Origin: Minisyncoccota bacterium
GTDB taxonomy: Bacteria; Patescibacteriota; Microgenomatia; UBA1400; PJMF01
Direction: 5' to 3'
NCBI GenBank assembly: GCA_014728425.1
Contig: WJLO01000112.1
Coordinates: 1-10,482, forward strand
Length of the DNA stretch: 10,482 nucleotides
Part shown: positions 1,570 to 6,201 of the stretch, piece after piece
How the letters are laid out: each line of letters begins with the position of its first letter
Numbering within the stretch: the stretch's first letter is position 1
The notes under the pieces: model-generated
What the model saw: only the letters and a program-made list of their open reading frames with translations
The model's database searches: none
What the model was told of the DNA's origin: nothing
Position numbers and translations under genes: made by a program

Positions 1570-1590
1570 TAATTATAGGATAAAAAATAT

Positions 1591-1656
1591 AGAAAAGTAT
1601 TTTATGGAAGCTCGGTAGCCTGCCCAACAAACCGAACTTCCATAAAGTACTTTTCT
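1591..1656. repeat. Near-perfect 26-bp inverted repeat, possible leftward terminator
   Basis: Arms 1591-1616 and 1631-1656 are complementary at 24 of 26 positions, around a 14-base loop. On the minus strand the hairpin is followed after three bases by a T-rich stretch (TTTTTT at 1582-1587), so it could terminate leftward transcription just before the sortase promoter. On the plus strand no T-run follows. The stem is longer and more AT-rich than a usual terminator, so a role as a protein-binding site or double-stranded RNA element is possible. Confidence 0.75.
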
Positions 1657-1696
1657 ACTGATTCATTAAGAGCAAAAAAGATCCATTAAGATAGAA

Positions 1697-1725
1697 TTTA
1701 CAAAAGATTCTGGCAGTGATAGAGT
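1697..1725 (+). promoter_or_regulatory. Promoter of the putative small RNA
   Basis: TTTACA (1697-1702; five of six to consensus), a 17-bp spacer and TAGAGT (1720-1725), with an extended -10 TG at 1717-1718. No ORF follows, but a structured region with T-run hairpins does. Confidence 0.55.
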
Positions 1726-1800
1726 TGTATCTAATCTAAGTGAACACAGTTTATTGTGTTTACGCAAGGCATTATTATTTGTGTTTTGCCTCGGCGGAAC

Positions 1801-1820
1801 AGCGGTAATACTGCTTTTTT
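1801..1820 (+). terminator. First of three tandem T-run hairpins
   Basis: The stem AGCGGT/ACTGCT (one G-T pair) with an AAT loop runs directly into six T residues at 1815-1820. It fits the 3' end of a roughly 90-nt small RNA. Confidence 0.65.
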
Positions 1821-1884
1821 CCACCTAAGTGTGCGGTTTATATCTGCCCAAGATTCTTCTCCGCAAATTTAGGTGGATTTTTTT
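1821..1884 (+). terminator. Large hairpin with seven-T tail
   Basis: The outer stem CCACCTAA/TTAGGTGG (1821-1828 with 1869-1876), an inner stem TGCGG/CCGCA (1832-1836 with 1861-1865) and a small apical ATCT/AGAT stem are followed by a run of seven T (1878-1884). It starts at the base after the previous T-run. The complex interior is unusual for a plain terminator, so it may be a regulatory or ligand-binding element. Confidence 0.55.
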
Positions 1885-1900
1885 GTTTTCATACCTTTAC

Positions 1901-1923
1901 TGCACCCCCAAGGGTGCATTTTT
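1901..1923 (+). terminator. Third tandem terminator hairpin
   Basis: A GC-rich 7-bp stem TGCACCC/GGGTGCA with a CCAA loop is followed by five T residues. No gene ends here on the plus strand, so it would act on the upstream RNA transcript and insulate the genes to the right. Confidence 0.7.
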
Positions 1924-1956
1924 GCTTTTAAAGATCTATTAAACACTGATAACCAG

Positions 1957-1985
1957 AGTATAACTCCAAAACATCAGTTCGTCAA
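1957..1985 (-). promoter_or_regulatory. Possible leftward promoter antisense to the small RNA
   Basis: On the minus strand TTGACG (1980-1985), a 17-bp spacer and TATACT (1957-1962), each one mismatch from consensus. A transcript from about 1950 would run antisense through the small-RNA region toward the inverted repeat at 1591-1656. No good protein frame follows it. Confidence 0.45.
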
Positions 1986-1987
1986 CC

Positions 1988-1993
1988 TATAAT
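1988..1993 (+). promoter_or_regulatory. Rightward TATAAT box upstream of the RHH gene
   Basis: A perfect plus-strand TATAAT lies next to the leftward promoter, but no -35 box is recognisable at 16-18 bp. It could drive the 2159 gene through a leader of about 160 bases. The rest of 1994-2158 shows no other structure I can support. Confidence 0.25.
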
Positions 1994-2158: not shown

Positions 2159-2308
2159 ATGCTAGTAAAATCAAAACCTCAGCTTTGTAGCACCATTGAT
2201 GCTAAGCTCATAAGTTATCTTACAGCCCAACAGCTTGGTTTTTCCAAAACAAAACTGCTTTCTGCAGCATTTAAAACAAGGTTTTATTACGCTATACTAA
2301 TATCATGA
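2159..2308 (+). CDS. Small ribbon-helix-helix-like protein overlapping the ATPase gene
   Basis: This ORF of 49 residues ends with TGA 2306-2308, overlapping the ATG at 2305 in the arrangement ATGA, typical of translational coupling. The sequence resembles a CopG/Arc-type ribbon-helix-helix domain: a short beta-like start (PQLCSTID), a helix (AKLISYLTAQQLG), the FSKTKLLS turn that corresponds to the usual xSRSELI element, and a second helix (AAFKTRF). Such proteins are DNA-binding dimers, often autoregulators or relaxosome accessory factors. No Shine-Dalgarno precedes the ATG, and the only upstream in-frame stop is TAA 2114-2116, so ATG 2159 is the sole ATG available. The C-terminal residues (YYAILIS) also encode the -10 box of the next gene, so part of the frame may be constrained by DNA function. 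The family call is tentative. Confidence 0.5.
   Translation: MLVKSKPQLCSTIDAKLISYLTAQQLGFSKTKLLSAAFKTRFYYAILIS
2270..2298 (+). promoter_or_regulatory. Putative leaderless promoter of the ATPase gene
   Basis: TATACT (2293-2298) lies six bases before the ATG at 2305, with a weak TTTAAA 17 bp further upstream (2270-2275). Transcription would start at or beside the A of the ATG. It lies inside the RHH-like ORF, so the ATPase may be made both from a coupled and a leaderless message. Confidence 0.45.
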
Positions 2309-4515
2309 CACCCCACACTGTGCTTGAGCTGCGTACCAGCCGCGATGCTAAACAAACCCCAGAAGCCATGGCTCAATTATTTGCCAGCCTGCCAGAGCTA
2401 CAAAACTCTTTACTAGACCGCCTGCTTAAACGCAGCGAGCACTTGAGTTTTGAAATCATTGTGCAAAATCAAACAGTCTTTTTTATGTGCTACTGCCCTA
2501 CCCGCTTGGTAGAATACTTGCATGGTGCTTTAACTGCTAGCTACCCTCAAGTCTTGATCACTCAATTAAATCACGATCCTTTGATAGAAATCCTTAAATC
2601 AGCTCAAGACCTTCACTTAGAAAATCCTTCAACAAGCGCTAGCTCTTTATCTGCTCCTGCCTTAAGCTTGGGCAAGCTGCAACTAGAACAAGCTCAATAT
2701 CTACCCTTAAAAACCTTTACTGACTTTCAAGACATTGATCCCTTGGCCACCCCTTTAACCACTCTGTCTAAAAGCCAACCACTTGATCAAATCGCTATTC
2801 AATTCGTTATTGCCGACCAAGGTCAAAACTGGAAAAACTATGCCCTAAAACAAATCAGTCCTAGCAATCACACTACTGAAGCTAGTCAGCCTCATCCGCA
2901 AAAAAACTTAATCGAACAAAAACTAGCAGAACCAGGAGTGCGCACTAGCATCAAACTAGCAGTACGAGCCAAAACTGCTCAACGCAGCCAATTGTTGCTA
3001 GAAAGCCTGGCAGCAGCTTTTAACTCAATCTCCAAAAGTAACAGCAACTCCTTGGTTTTGAAAAAAATTTCTTGGTTTAAAACCGATTTTATTAACCAAA
3101 TGCTTAGCCGCAGCTTCAAACGCAACCCCAGACAGCATCTTAGTATTAATGAGCTAGCCACCCTTTATCATCTACCAAACGAACAACTAGCAGTAATTCC
3201 CAACTTGGCTTGGGGTAAAAAACTCCTTGGCGAACCACCTGCCAACTTACCCATTGTTACTCAAGAAATGCCAGCTGACTACAAAGATGAAATCAATGTT
3301 TTTGCTGAAACAACTTTTAAAAACCAGCCAGTAAAATATGGTTTATGGCGCCAAGACCGGCGGCGACATGTTTATGTCATTGGTAAAACTGGCACTGGTA
3401 AATCAACTCTTTTAGCCAACATGGCCATCAATGATCTGAAAAAGGACGAGGGCTTGTGTGTGGTTGATCCCCATGGCGATCTAGCAGAAACCTTACTTGA
3501 CTATATTCCTTCTCATCGCATTAATGACGTGGTCTACTTCAACCCCGCTGATCAGCAACGCACTGTTCAGATCAACTTATTTGAAGGCAAGAACTTGGTT
3601 CACCGTGAATTAATTGCTTCTGGCATTGTTTCGATTTTTTACAAACTCTATGGCTATTCCTGGGGGCCAAGACTGGAATATATTCTCCGCAATGCTTTGC
3701 TCACTTTATTAAAACACCAAAGAGCCAAGCTTTCTGATGTGCTAAATTTATTGACCAATGCTAAATACCGCAGCAAAGTAATTGACAAGCTAGATGACCC
3801 AATCCTAAAAAGCTTTTGGGTGGATGAGTTTAACCAAATGAAAGACCGACAACGCATGGAGTCTATTGCTTCGATTCTCAACAAAGTTGGCCAATTTGTT
3901 TCTTCTCCCTTAGTAAGAAATGTGGTTAATGCTACCAGTAGTTCTTTTAGCATTGAAGACGTAATGAGTCAGGGTAAAATCTTAATTGCCAATCTATCTC
4001 AAGGACGCCTTGGCGAAGACAACGCAACCTTGCTAGGAGCAATGTTAATCACCAAAATTCAGCTGGCAGCCATGAGTAGAGTCAACATGCCAGAAGCAGA
4101 ACGGCGTGACTTTTATCTTTATGTAGATGAGTTTCAAAATTTTGCTACTCAATCTTTTAATACAATCCTTTCGGAAGCGCGAAAATATCGTCTGAACCTA
4201 ACTTTGGCTAACCAATATATTGCCCAAATTCCCGAAGAGGTGCAAAAAGCCATCTTTGGCAACTGCGGCAGTATCATTAGCTTTGTGATGGGAGCAGAAG
4301 ACTCTGCTGTATTTAATCGAGAATATGGGGACAAATACACTCAAGAAGATTTGGTCTCCTTAGGTCGTTATCAAATTATTAATAAACTAAGCATCAACAA
4401 CATTATCTCTGCTCCATTTCCAGCTCACACCTTGCCTTTGGCTAGTAGCGCCAATCAGAATCGCGAAAAAGTGATTCGAGTCAGTCGTGAACGTTATGCA
4501 CGGAAGAAAAAATAG
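2305..4515 (+). CDS. TraD/VirD4-type coupling ATPase (type IV secretion DNA-transfer family)
   Basis: This 736-residue P-loop ATPase belongs to the HerA/FtsK-like group that moves DNA or protein through a membrane channel. The N-terminal about 330 residues form an uncharacterised domain without transmembrane helices. The motor domain follows: Walker A GKTGTGKS (360-367); DPHGDLAETLLDYIP starting at Asp388, the signature of TraD/TraG-type proteins; Walker B YLYVDEFQNF with Asp608 and Glu609; and a sensor-like ANQYIAQIP (635-643). The C-terminus is basic (ERYARKKK). Unlike classical VirD4 it lacks an N-terminal membrane anchor, and no relaxase, VirB4 or pilus genes are adjacent, so the partner channel is unknown. 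Such solitary ATPases are frequent in CPR genomes (family knowledge). It overlaps the RHH-like gene by four bases. No Shine-Dalgarno is seen. Confidence 0.88.
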   Translation: MTPHTVLELRTSRDAKQTPEAMAQLFASLPELQNSLLDRLLKRSEHLSFEIIVQNQTVFFMCYCPTRLVEYLHGALTASYPQVLITQLNHDPLIEILKSAQDLHLENPSTSASSLSAPALSLGKLQLEQAQYLPLKTFTDFQDIDPLATPLTTLSKSQPLDQIAIQFVIADQGQNWKNYALKQISPSNHTTEASQPHPQKNLIEQKLAEPGVRTSIKLAVRAKTAQRSQLLLESLAAAFNSISKSNSNSLVLKKISWFKTDFINQMLSRSFKRNPRQHLSINELATLYHLPNEQLAVIPNLAWGKKLLGEPPANLPIVTQEMPADYKDEINVFAETTFKNQPVKYGLWRQDRRRHVYVIGKTGTGKSTLLANMAINDLKKDEGLCVVDPHGDLAETLLDYIPSHRINDVVYFNPADQQRTVQINLFEGKNLVHRELIASGIVSIFYKLYGYSWGPRLEYILRNALLTLLKHQRAKLSDVLNLLTNAKYRSKVIDKLDDPILKSFWVDEFNQMKDRQRMESIASILNKVGQFVSSPLVRNVVNATSSSFSIEDVMSQGKILIANLSQGRLGEDNATLLGAMLITKIQLAAMSRVNMPEAERRDFYLYVDEFQNFATQSFNTILSEARKYRLNLTLANQYIAQIPEEVQKAIFGNCGSIISFVMGAEDSAVFNREYGDKYTQEDLVSLGRYQIINKLSINNIISAPFPAHTLPLASSANQNREKVIRVSRERYARKKK

Positions 4516-4791: not shown

Positions 4792-6201
4792 TTAACAACC
4801 TAACTCTTTTAAAACTTGCTTAATTGTTTTATGACTTTGACGCGAGATGATCTTTTTAAAGCCCAGGCGCTTGGCCTCTTTAATACGCTGCTTTAAAAAA
4901 CTCACAGTTCTTAACTCTCCTAAAAGACCGATTTCTCCAATAAAAACTGTGTTTTTGGGTAGTTTTTTATTTTTAAGTGAACTAGCTACAGCTACTGCGC
5001 AACCAAGATCAATAGCTGGTTCTTTAAGTTTAAAGCCGCCAGTAGCACTTAGAAAAACATCCTTGCTGCCCAAAGGCAACTTAGCATGTTTTTGTAATAC
5101 TGCTGCTAAAACTTGAATTCTTGATAATTCAATACCTCGACCCACTCTTCTGGGCATAGCTAAGTTAGAGTCCACTACCAAAGCCTGGATTTCTGCCAAT
5201 AACGGCCTGGTGCCCTCCATAGTGCAAACAGTAGCACTACCTGGCACTCCTTGCGTGACCTCATCTAAAAACAACTCACTTGGATTACTAACTTCTGTTA
5301 AGCCCAAATCTGTTAAACGAAATACCCCCACCTCATCAGTAGCTCCAAAACGATTCTTCACCGCTCGCAACAACCTTAATTGACCAGTGCGCTCCCCTTC
5401 CATCTCCAACACTGTATCTACCATATGTTCTAAAATTTTAGGCCCAGCAATACTGCCCTCTTTAGTAACATGACCAACTAAAAAAGTAGCTATGCCTCTA
5501 GGTTTAACTACTTCGATCAATCTTTGAGTACACTCGCGGATTTGACCAACACTACCACTGGCGCCAGTAAGATCGCTGGTGCTCAGGGTTTGAATACTGT
5601 CTACTACTAATAAGCTTGGCTGATGTTGCTTAATCAAAGCCAGTAACTGATCCACATCAGTAGTGGTAACTAACAAAAGTTTTTGTCCTATAACTTCTAA
5701 TAAATCCTGACCCGAAAATTGTTTTGTTTTCTTAGGTTTTTTGTGTTCATTTTTAGCAATTCGCTTGATTCTTAAACTAATCTGTTGAGGACTTTCCTCT
5801 CCACAAACATATAAAATTGGCTGTTTATTACTAACAAAGCGTTTTTTAGCTAAAGTTAACTTAAGCACTAATTGAGTTAATAAAGTTGATTTACCAATTC
5901 CTGGCTCTCCTCCAATCAAAGCCACTACTCCTGCCACCAAACCACCGCCCAAAACACGGTCTAACTCCCCAATTAAACTAGAAACCCGTTTTTTATCACT
6001 GCTAAAGACGTCTTCCTCTGGCAGACTGACTAAAAACTGCTCTAACTCCTTAGGCTTAAACCGAGTGGTCAAGTTTTTGTTGCTTTTACTAGACTGAGCA
6101 ACTTCTTCTACCAAACTATGCCATTGGCCACAATCATTACACTGACCTTGCCATTTAGGATGACTAGCTCCACACTTTTGACAAACAAACTTTGCTGACA
6201 T
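4792..6201 (-). CDS. radA: DNA repair and recombination ATPase RadA (Sms)
   Basis: RadA is a hexameric helicase-like RecA relative that drives branch migration during homologous recombination and repair. The 469 residues show the full family layout. An N-terminal zinc finger has CxxC pairs at Cys7/Cys10 and Cys21/Cys24. The RecA-like core has Walker A GEPGIGKS (98-105) and Walker B LLVVDS (Asp201), and the diagnostic KNRFG motif sits at 282-286. A Lon-protease-like C-terminal domain (about 300-469) lacks an obvious protease catalytic pair, as usual for RadA. Length matches the family. ATG 6201 is preceded by GGAG five bases upstream; this site lies at the end of the preceding gene, whose stop is two bases before the ATG, so translation is probably coupled. 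Downstream it converges with the coupling ATPase. Confidence 0.97.
   Translation of the reverse strand: MSAKFVCQKCGASHPKWQGQCNDCGQWHSLVEEVAQSSKSNKNLTTRFKPKELEQFLVSLPEEDVFSSDKKRVSSLIGELDRVLGGGLVAGVVALIGGEPGIGKSTLLTQLVLKLTLAKKRFVSNKQPILYVCGEESPQQISLRIKRIAKNEHKKPKKTKQFSGQDLLEVIGQKLLLVTTTDVDQLLALIKQHQPSLLVVDSIQTLSTSDLTGASGSVGQIRECTQRLIEVVKPRGIATFLVGHVTKEGSIAGPKILEHMVDTVLEMEGERTGQLRLLRAVKNRFGATDEVGVFRLTDLGLTEVSNPSELFLDEVTQGVPGSATVCTMEGTRPLLAEIQALVVDSNLAMPRRVGRGIELSRIQVLAAVLQKHAKLPLGSKDVFLSATGGFKLKEPAIDLGCAVAVASSLKNKKLPKNTVFIGEIGLLGELRTVSFLKQRIKEAKRLGFKKIISRQSHKTIKQVLKELGC

What the first reader, a model, noticed from the sequence alone, without database searches (positions are those of the whole stretch)
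1697..1923. Candidate new small RNA with extended -10 promoter and three tandem terminator-like hairpins
An intergenic plus-strand unit has a promoter (TTTACA, 17 bp, TG-n-TAGAGT), stable stems, and three successive hairpins each followed by five to seven T. No protein frame explains it and no standard RNA family was recognised. The middle hairpin (1821-1884) is elaborate and could be a sensing or processing element rather than a plain terminator.
Basis: partly seen in the sequence, partly recalled or inferred. Interest (0 to 1): 0.7.

Follow-up and report, generated by a model that had tools for sequence, protein, structure and literature searches.

The report
Widespread small RNA with antisense partner
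The stretch looks like the gene of a short regulatory-type RNA, unknown to the RNA database searched, that recurs as a single copy in many members of one large class of uncultured dwarf bacteria, usually beside an opposite-strand hairpin that it could pair with.

Summary
In detail: a plus-strand promoter (1697-1725) and hairpins H1 (1740-1763), H2 (1766-1817), H3 (1820-1877) and H4 (1901-1918), the last three followed by T runs. H1+H2 are the core of a conserved RNA absent from Rfam. Covariance models find H2 in 72 of 88 genomes of the window's order and 177 of 373 drawn from its class. In a phylum-wide draw of 379 there are 29 matches, 27 in the class and 2 outside, which I judge false. H2 covaries and reads as plus-strand RNA. 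H3 occurs in only some relatives. The locus is wider than reported: hairpin A (1590-1657) reads as minus-strand RNA with a GGGCAGG loop, and a conserved minus-strand promoter (1985-1957) points through the RNA towards A. The plus RNA carries the complement of A's loop in 89 of 106 loci (13 expected). It sits in exactly one hairpin in 84, and which hairpin depends on lineage. Best reading: an sRNA with an antisense/kissing partner RNA. A is missing in about a third of loci fetched through H2, and expression and targets are untested.

The parts
1590..1657 (-). Hairpin A (27-nt arms); minus-strand RNA loop GUUGGGCAGGC at 1628-1618; followed on the minus strand by a T-rich tail in this genome
1697..1725 (+). 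Promoter of RNA B: -35 TTTACA, 17-bp spacer, extended -10 TG.TAGAGT; start inferred near 1732
1740..1763 (+). Hairpin H1 of RNA B; in many other lineages its loop carries CUGYYC, in the window's family (36 loci) it does not
1766..1820 (+). Hairpin H2 with T run 1815-1820: conserved, covarying core and intrinsic terminator of RNA B
1820..1884 (+). Hairpin H3 with T run 1878-1884; loop CTGCCCAA at 1844-1851 is the complement of UUGGGCAG in A's loop; kept only in some relatives
1901..1923 (+). H4, simple terminator hairpin with T run; conservation not seen (by eye only)
1957..1991 (-). Minus-strand promoter: box TATAGG (1991-1986), -35 TTGACG (1985-1980), 17 bp, -10 TATACT (1962-1957)
1587..1951 (-). 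Inferred antisense RNA C from the minus promoter through B to A, about 365 nt; not shown to be transcribed
   Evidence: inference

Best explanation
The locus is a two-RNA unit of one class of Patescibacteria (Microgenomates by the record titles). RNA B (plus strand, about 90 nt to the H2 terminator, or about 150 nt to H3 in this genome) is a stable intergenic sRNA made from its own promoter. One of its hairpin loops usually presents a C-rich CCUGYCC-like seed. RNA C (minus strand) starts just downstream of B, runs antisense through the whole of B and ends in or passes through hairpin A, whose conserved loop GGGCAGG is complementary to B's seed. Shown by sequence comparison: B's promoter, structure, strand and conservation; A's structure, strand and loop; the minus promoter; the complementarity. 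Inferred: that both RNAs are made, that B and C meet by loop-loop (kissing) contact at A and at the antisense H1-H2 region, and that C thereby titrates or triggers decay of B (or B controls C), so that the level of free B is set by the balance of the two promoters. What free B regulates is unknown.
For: H2 in 72 of 88 order genomes and 177 of 373 class genomes. In one search each genome with a match has one place; second matches are the same place read on the other strand. Covariation on 47 chosen sequences: 97.1% of cells paired against 88.8% in shuffles, 11 of 18 pairs with two-sided changes against 4.9; further pair types 25 against 21.7, reached by 8 of 500 shuffles. Strand: H2 pairs 97.1% as plus against 87.2% as minus; A (29 family loci) pairs 94.5% as minus against 83.1% as plus. 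A lies upstream of 79 of 106 loci (shuffle control 12 of 5,300) and pairs better as minus RNA in 74, as plus in 2, tied in 3. Minus promoter within 320 nt after H2 (score at least 10) in 94% of f1, 68% of f2-f15 plus one Shapirobacteria locus, 63% of the Davies group and 67% of the Curtiss group, against 11-14% in shuffles; plus-strand control 37, 3, 7 and 11%. Complement of A's loop in B: 89 of 106, 13.0 expected from shuffles. The motif is in exactly one of H1/H2/H3 in 84 loci, in two in 2, in none by the test in 20.
Against: No expression data. 5 of the 42 family genomes, at 92-98% completeness, show no H2 (G011, G013, G014, G022, G032), by loss or by the strict filters. A is not general: 51 of 77 loci fetched through H2 have it by the test; not found in 9 of 9 Curtiss-group loci, 6 of 6 f12 loci and 3 of 5 f9 loci, although a CCTGCCC hairpin is visible by eye in f12 and f9. 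No match in G016 and G017. In G076 A lies 3.3 kb from B. The seed is missing in f11 (0 of 3), f12 (0 of 6) and f14 (0 of 1), although A is present in f11 (2 of 3) and f14 (1 of 1). A has a T-rich tail on the minus strand in 22 of 33 f1 loci but only 4 of 19 and 5 of 27 elsewhere, with 12, 2 and 4 on the plus strand. The Curtiss group shows a strong plus promoter by the score in only 11% of 9 loci. Loci are related by descent, so counts are not independent events. Shuffles keep base composition only. The seed pattern was defined after A's loop had been seen.
Confidence: 0.55

Rival explanations
1. B is a trans-acting sRNA for mRNAs elsewhere. Its C-rich loop pairs with purine-rich mRNA sites, and A is merely a similar target-like hairpin or a terminator; antisense RNA C is weak or incidental.
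For: B is kept in lineages where A was not found (Curtiss group, G016, G017) and the C-rich loop persists there. C-rich accessible loops are a usual sRNA seed (recalled).
Against: A's loop core is strongly conserved and A is next to B in 51 of 77 loci fetched through H2. Where the motif is present its variants keep Watson-Crick or G.U pairing with GGGCAGG (the search pattern itself favours such variants). No mRNA targets were sought.
Confidence: 0.22
2. The hairpins are only transcription punctuation: bidirectional terminators separating neighbouring operons.
For: H2 is T-tailed on the plus strand in most lineages and preceded by A runs that make it partly T-tailed on the minus strand; A is T-tailed in many f1 loci.
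Against: Terminators do not keep stem sequence, a bulged nucleotide, loop sequence and single copy across a class (general knowledge). B has its own conserved promoter. The neighbouring genes differ between families while the unit persists.
Confidence: 0.1
3. The minus strand is what matters: a long leader of the leftward gene (a Rho-like, sortase or surface-protein gene), with A as attenuator and B as its antisense regulator.
For: A leftward gene commonly starts just beyond A. A is terminator-like in many f1 loci. The minus promoter precedes A.
Against: The leftward gene is of many kinds, and the nearest one lies on the other strand in 4 of 5 f9 loci and in L294. Promoter-like sites also lie between A and the gene more often than in shuffles (36, 32 and 52% against 8-12%).
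Confidence: 0.08
4. B is a diverged housekeeping RNA (SRP or 6S RNA) that Rfam models miss in these genomes.
For: Rfam SRP models RF00169 and RF01854 and 6S model RF00013 find nothing in 13 of 13 genomes of the class. B is widespread and single-copy.
Against: B lacks the SRP domain IV loop motifs and the long rod with central bubble of 6S (motifs recalled). The models also fail on control genomes: RF00169 rings in 12 of 14, RF01854 in 9 of 14, RF00013 in 6 of 14; B. subtilis is missed by both SRP models. So absence is weak evidence.
Confidence: 0.04

Closest known systems
ColE1-type RNA I / RNA II antisense pair (recalled)
   Same: A short structured RNA with a terminator hairpin, fully antisense to a longer (here inferred) RNA; complementary loops could start pairing by kissing.
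   Different: Chromosomal, single copy, 26-36 kb from dnaA in three genomes and not at the GC-skew switch in the two sampled; no replication role indicated; the extra hairpin A outside the overlap repeats the target loop.
Base-pairing sRNAs with C-rich hairpin loops, and sponge RNAs that titrate them (recalled)
   Same: Own promoter, intrinsic terminator, C-rich accessible loop, complementary RNA in cis.
   Different: No Rfam relation; no known target; the seed lies in different hairpins in different lineages while the terminator hairpin stays conserved.
Diverged RNase P RNA of CPR bacteria (PMC8172020, passages seen)
   Same: A structural RNA of CPR bacteria that standard models can miss.
   Different: B is about 90-190 nt with two or three simple hairpins; no RNase P match in 1530-2304 even at E up to 10.

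Membership tests
Intergenic bacterial sRNA gene (kind) | Own promoter upstream of the structured unit | tested here: met
   Scores of at least 10 in 56% (f1), 71% (f2-f15 and one Shapirobacteria locus), 70% (Davies group) and 11% (Curtiss group) against 3-4% in shuffles; the Curtiss group is the weak one.
Intergenic bacterial sRNA gene (kind) | Conserved, covarying RNA structure on one strand | tested here: met
Intergenic bacterial sRNA gene (kind) | Intrinsic terminator | tested here: met
   H2 followed by a T run in most lineages; H3 in genera g4, g5, g13, g14, g18; read from the sequences
Intergenic bacterial sRNA gene (kind) | Discrete transcript detected | not testable with these tools
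   No RNA-seq available here
Any Rfam 15 family | Match at the gathering score | tested here: not met
   0 matches; permissive matches (best E 0.067 and 0.08) far below cut-off
ColE1 RNA I / RNA II type | Two overlapping opposite RNAs, each with a promoter | tested here: inconclusive
   Both promoters conserved by sequence; transcription not seen
ColE1 RNA I / RNA II type | Located at a replication origin | tested here: not met
   dnaA lies 26-36 kb away in G003, G021 and G039 (no DnaA match in G000); the skew switch, sampled over about half of G021 and a third of G039, lies near dnaA, not here
SRP RNA | Match to SRP models at this locus | tested here: not met
   No Rfam match at the locus; RF00169 and RF01854 0 of 13 genomes
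6S RNA | Match to the 6S model | tested here: not met
   RF00013 0 of 13 genomes; the model rings in only 6 of 14 control genomes, four of the misses being archaea

The most novel reading that the evidence does not exclude
This class of Patescibacteria carries its own widespread RNA switch (27 of at least 32 class genomes with the broad model): a single-copy sRNA whose C-rich seed moves between hairpins in evolution while staying complementary to the conserved loop of a convergently transcribed partner RNA. It would be a kissing sense-antisense pair working as a global regulator in genomes of about 1 Mb.
Probability: 0.3. Interest if true: 0.8.

Novelty: new variant of a known kind. Interest (0 to 1): 0.62.

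Why it matters
None of the papers listed in seven searches of an open-licence library is about a small RNA of Microgenomates or sRNA regulation in Patescibacteria. In some searches only the top 20 of 164, 15 of 324 and 10 of 2,478 were listed, and subscription papers are not held. A single-copy RNA kept widely across a class of reduced bacteria suggests a basic role, and it gives a marker and a ready covariance model for metatranscriptomes. The motif that lies in different hairpins in different lineages while its partner loop stays fixed is evolutionary evidence for a base-pairing function and can be tested in vitro without culturing the organisms.

Tried and rejected
Origin of replication: DnaA-box-like TTATCCACA sites near the minus promoter suggested oriC, but GC skew and the position of dnaA put the origin elsewhere. 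Protein coding on the minus strand: rejected because H2 varies in length by single bases between relatives. Mobile or phage element: no similar DNA in the phage and plasmid collections, 0 hits in viral contigs, one locus per genome. Match outside the class: the two phylum hits (G528 beside what looks like a tRNA gene, G704 in a stretch that looks coding) are simple stem matches without the internal motif; I read them as false. SRP core by a recalled pattern in parts of G021 and G039: no convincing candidate; the pattern was crude. A resemblance of H2's 3' side to the 16S rRNA 530 loop (recalled) was seen and not pursued. Trans-target prediction in mRNAs was not attempted.

Data sets. The 106-locus set is 29 family loci fetched through A (the window), 37 loci fetched through H2 and 40 of the 66 named loci. 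Three of the 40 loci (L232-L234) were dropped because no H2 match had been reported for those genomes; L091 (G015) was dropped because my A pattern did not match, although models R1 and R2 both find it. A2 has 28 of the 29 family loci (L077's contig ends inside the terminator); A3 has 47 of the 106, chosen for diversity. My H3 test missed H3 in L065-L067. The group labels Davies (30) and Curtiss (9) for records titled only 'bacterium', 'Microgenomates' or 'Patescibacteria' are mine, by sequence. The names Rho, RadA, Obg and LysM/M23 for neighbours are my reading of translations and BLAST clusters; only the window's own eight proteins were run against Pfam. The structure counted was drawn on one of the sequences, which favours it over the slid controls, and shuffling there does not remove relatedness.

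Full report
What was claimed and what is there. The window is contig 105 of an 846-kb draft genome. The finding lies in the gap 1532-2304 between a sortase-domain gene (731-1531, minus) and a TrwB/HerA-like ATPase gene (2305-4515, plus). A gene that I read as RadA-like (4792-6201, minus), a cytidylyltransferase-like gene, one without Pfam match and a solute-binding-protein gene follow. The folded unit is far more stable than shuffles (z -9.0 for 1732-1930; z -5.5 for 1732-1822). Rfam has nothing at its cut-offs; the best permissive matches are GcvB over 1696-1884 (19.1 bits, cut-off 42, E 0.08) and mir-337 over hairpin A (E 0.067), which I take as chance.

Conservation. A DNA search of the 42 genomes held for the same family, the window's own included, gave weak but consistent hits in 28, mostly in two places: a hairpin upstream of the finding (A, 1590-1657) and the first T-tailed hairpin (H2). 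A pattern for A's loop occurs exactly once in 28 of the 42 genomes and never in the reversed control. All 29 loci taken through A also have H2, 146-243 nt away (one of them, G028, has a one-base variant of the pattern). A covariance model of H2 (R2) matches 72 of 88 genomes of the order and 47 of 55 genera. Within the family it matches 37 of 42; the five misses are 92-98% complete. A model of A (R1) matches 50 of 88. R2 matches 177 of 373 genomes drawn from the class. A broader model (R3) matches 29 of 379 genomes drawn from the phylum: 27 are of the same class, where 5 further class members are listed without a match, and 2 are outside it (330 unmatched genomes are not listed). I inspected those two and read them as false. 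A pattern for H2 scanned over one genome for each of 84,980 species gave 66 stretches, titled as Davies-, Curtiss-, Collier-, Beckwith-, Chisholm-, Shapiro- or Pacebacteria, Microgenomates, Paceibacterota, Patescibacteria or plain 'bacterium'; viral contigs gave none.

Structure and strand. On 47 sequences from 17 groups, H2 forms 97.1% standard pairs (88.8% in shuffles). 11 of 18 pairs change on both sides (4.9 in shuffles), among them a U-A to A-U exchange (28 and 17 sequences, 1 G-C) beside a conserved bulged purine. Its G.U pairs favour the plus strand: 97.1% against 87.2% paired. A behaves the opposite way in the family alignment, 94.5% paired on the minus strand against 83.1% on the plus strand, and over the wider set it pairs better as minus RNA in 74 loci, as plus in 2, tied in 3. 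H1 is a variable hairpin. H3 is found by the test in 12 of the 36 loci from this family and by eye in three more (L065-L067).

Promoters on both strands. Upstream of H2 a plus promoter of the form TTKACA-17-TG.TANNNT is common at -66 to -92, but several genus g14 loci score best at -99 to -102 with another pair of boxes, a few loci score poorly, and two (L199, L204) have none by the scan. Scores of 10 or more occur in 56, 71, 70 and 11% of the four groups against 3-4% in shuffles. Downstream of H2 a minus promoter reaches 10 or more in 94, 68, 63 and 67% against 11-14% in shuffles; the plus-strand control is 37, 3, 7 and 11%. A TATAGG box before a TTGA-type -35 occurs in 23 of 36, 29 of 31, 5 of 30 and 0 of 9 loci. 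Between H2 and A no minus promoter reaches 10 in the three non-f1 groups (f1 14% against 5% in shuffles). So the simplest source of a minus RNA carrying A is the promoter beyond H2, which makes that RNA (C) antisense to all of B (inference).

Complementary loops. A's minus-strand loop is GUUGGGCAGGC in all 29 family loci, with the core GGGCAGG in other lineages. RNA B contains at least six bases complementary to that core (one wobble allowed) in 89 of 106 loci; shuffles predict 13.0. In families f2, f3, f4, f5, f6, f8, f9, f10, f13 and f15, in the Davies and Curtiss groups and in the Shapirobacteria locus the motif lies in H1 as CUGUCC, CUGCUC or CUGCCC. In the window's own family it lies either in H2 (18 loci) or in H3 (11 by the test, 3 more by eye), never in both. 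In the window it is CTGCCCAA at 1844-1851, an exact complement of UUGGGCAG in A. Over all loci 84 have it in one hairpin, 2 in two, 20 in none by the test. Lineages without it (f11 0 of 3, f12 0 of 6, f14 0 of 1) are exceptions that my reading must carry. Two of the most distant class loci, read by eye (L329, L332), also show CCUGCCU or CCUGUCC in the H1 position.

Limits of the partner idea. Of the 77 loci fetched through H2, 51 have A by the test. It was not found in the 9 Curtiss-group loci, nor in G016 and G017. In G076 it lies 3.3 kb away, beside a sortase-like gene. A is T-tailed on the minus strand in 22 of 33 family loci but in 4 of 19 and 5 of 27 elsewhere, so it is a terminator at most in part of the tree. 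B is therefore the constant part and A/C the frequent companion.

Mechanism. I take B to be a base-pairing sRNA, with C/A as its cis-encoded antagonist or target through loop-loop contact. Shown by sequence: gene anatomy, strand, conservation, complementarity. Inferred: transcription of both RNAs, contact, outcome. The main rival is a trans-acting sRNA for which A is incidental.

Novelty. It meets the sequence-level tests of an sRNA gene, matches no Rfam family at cut-off, and fails the origin test of a ColE1-like replicon. The literature listings showed no paper on a small RNA of this group. The library is open-licence only and three of the seven listings were cut. One listed paper on RNA-guided TIGR-Tas systems (PMC12045711, listing only) names CPR but concerns another kind of RNA; the candidate list of PMC8040213 (listing only) was not compared. 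PMC8172020 (passages) reports that CPR genomes hold RNase P RNAs that models miss, which makes an unnoticed RNA here plausible.

The wording on prevalence, on the phylum draw and on the literature was narrowed against the calls.

Noticed in passing
G000, G003, G021, G039, G045, G047, G049, G063, G094, G113, G128, G200, G217: No SRP RNA by RF00169 or RF01854 and no 6S RNA by RF00013 in any of 13 genomes of the class. The SRP searches also miss B. subtilis among the controls, so this is a lead on diverged or lost SRP RNA, not a finding.
   Followed up: partly
L196-L199, L212, L213, L219, downstream of H2: DnaA-box-like TTATCCACA (or TGTGGATAA) sites lie upstream of the conserved minus-strand promoter in several loci although oriC is elsewhere (by eye); possibly a DnaA-responsive promoter.
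   Followed up: no
Minus strand 1991-1986 and equivalents: A TATAGG box directly before the -35 of the minus promoter is common in the window's order. By the same pattern 17 boxes lie in about 774 kb of G021, and none there with a full promoter behind it (1 in 400 kb of G039).
   Followed up: partly
L253, L279, L282, L289, L291, L293 downstream of H2: In some Davies-group loci a further terminator-like hairpin downstream repeats the H2 loop sequence CCGTCTGC (by eye).
   Followed up: no
14-84 and 155-235: Two similar stretches (both with TGGCGCAA and GAGCAAAATTA-like words) lie about 140 bp apart at the left end of the window; possibly remnants of a duplicated gene. Seen by eye only.
   Followed up: no
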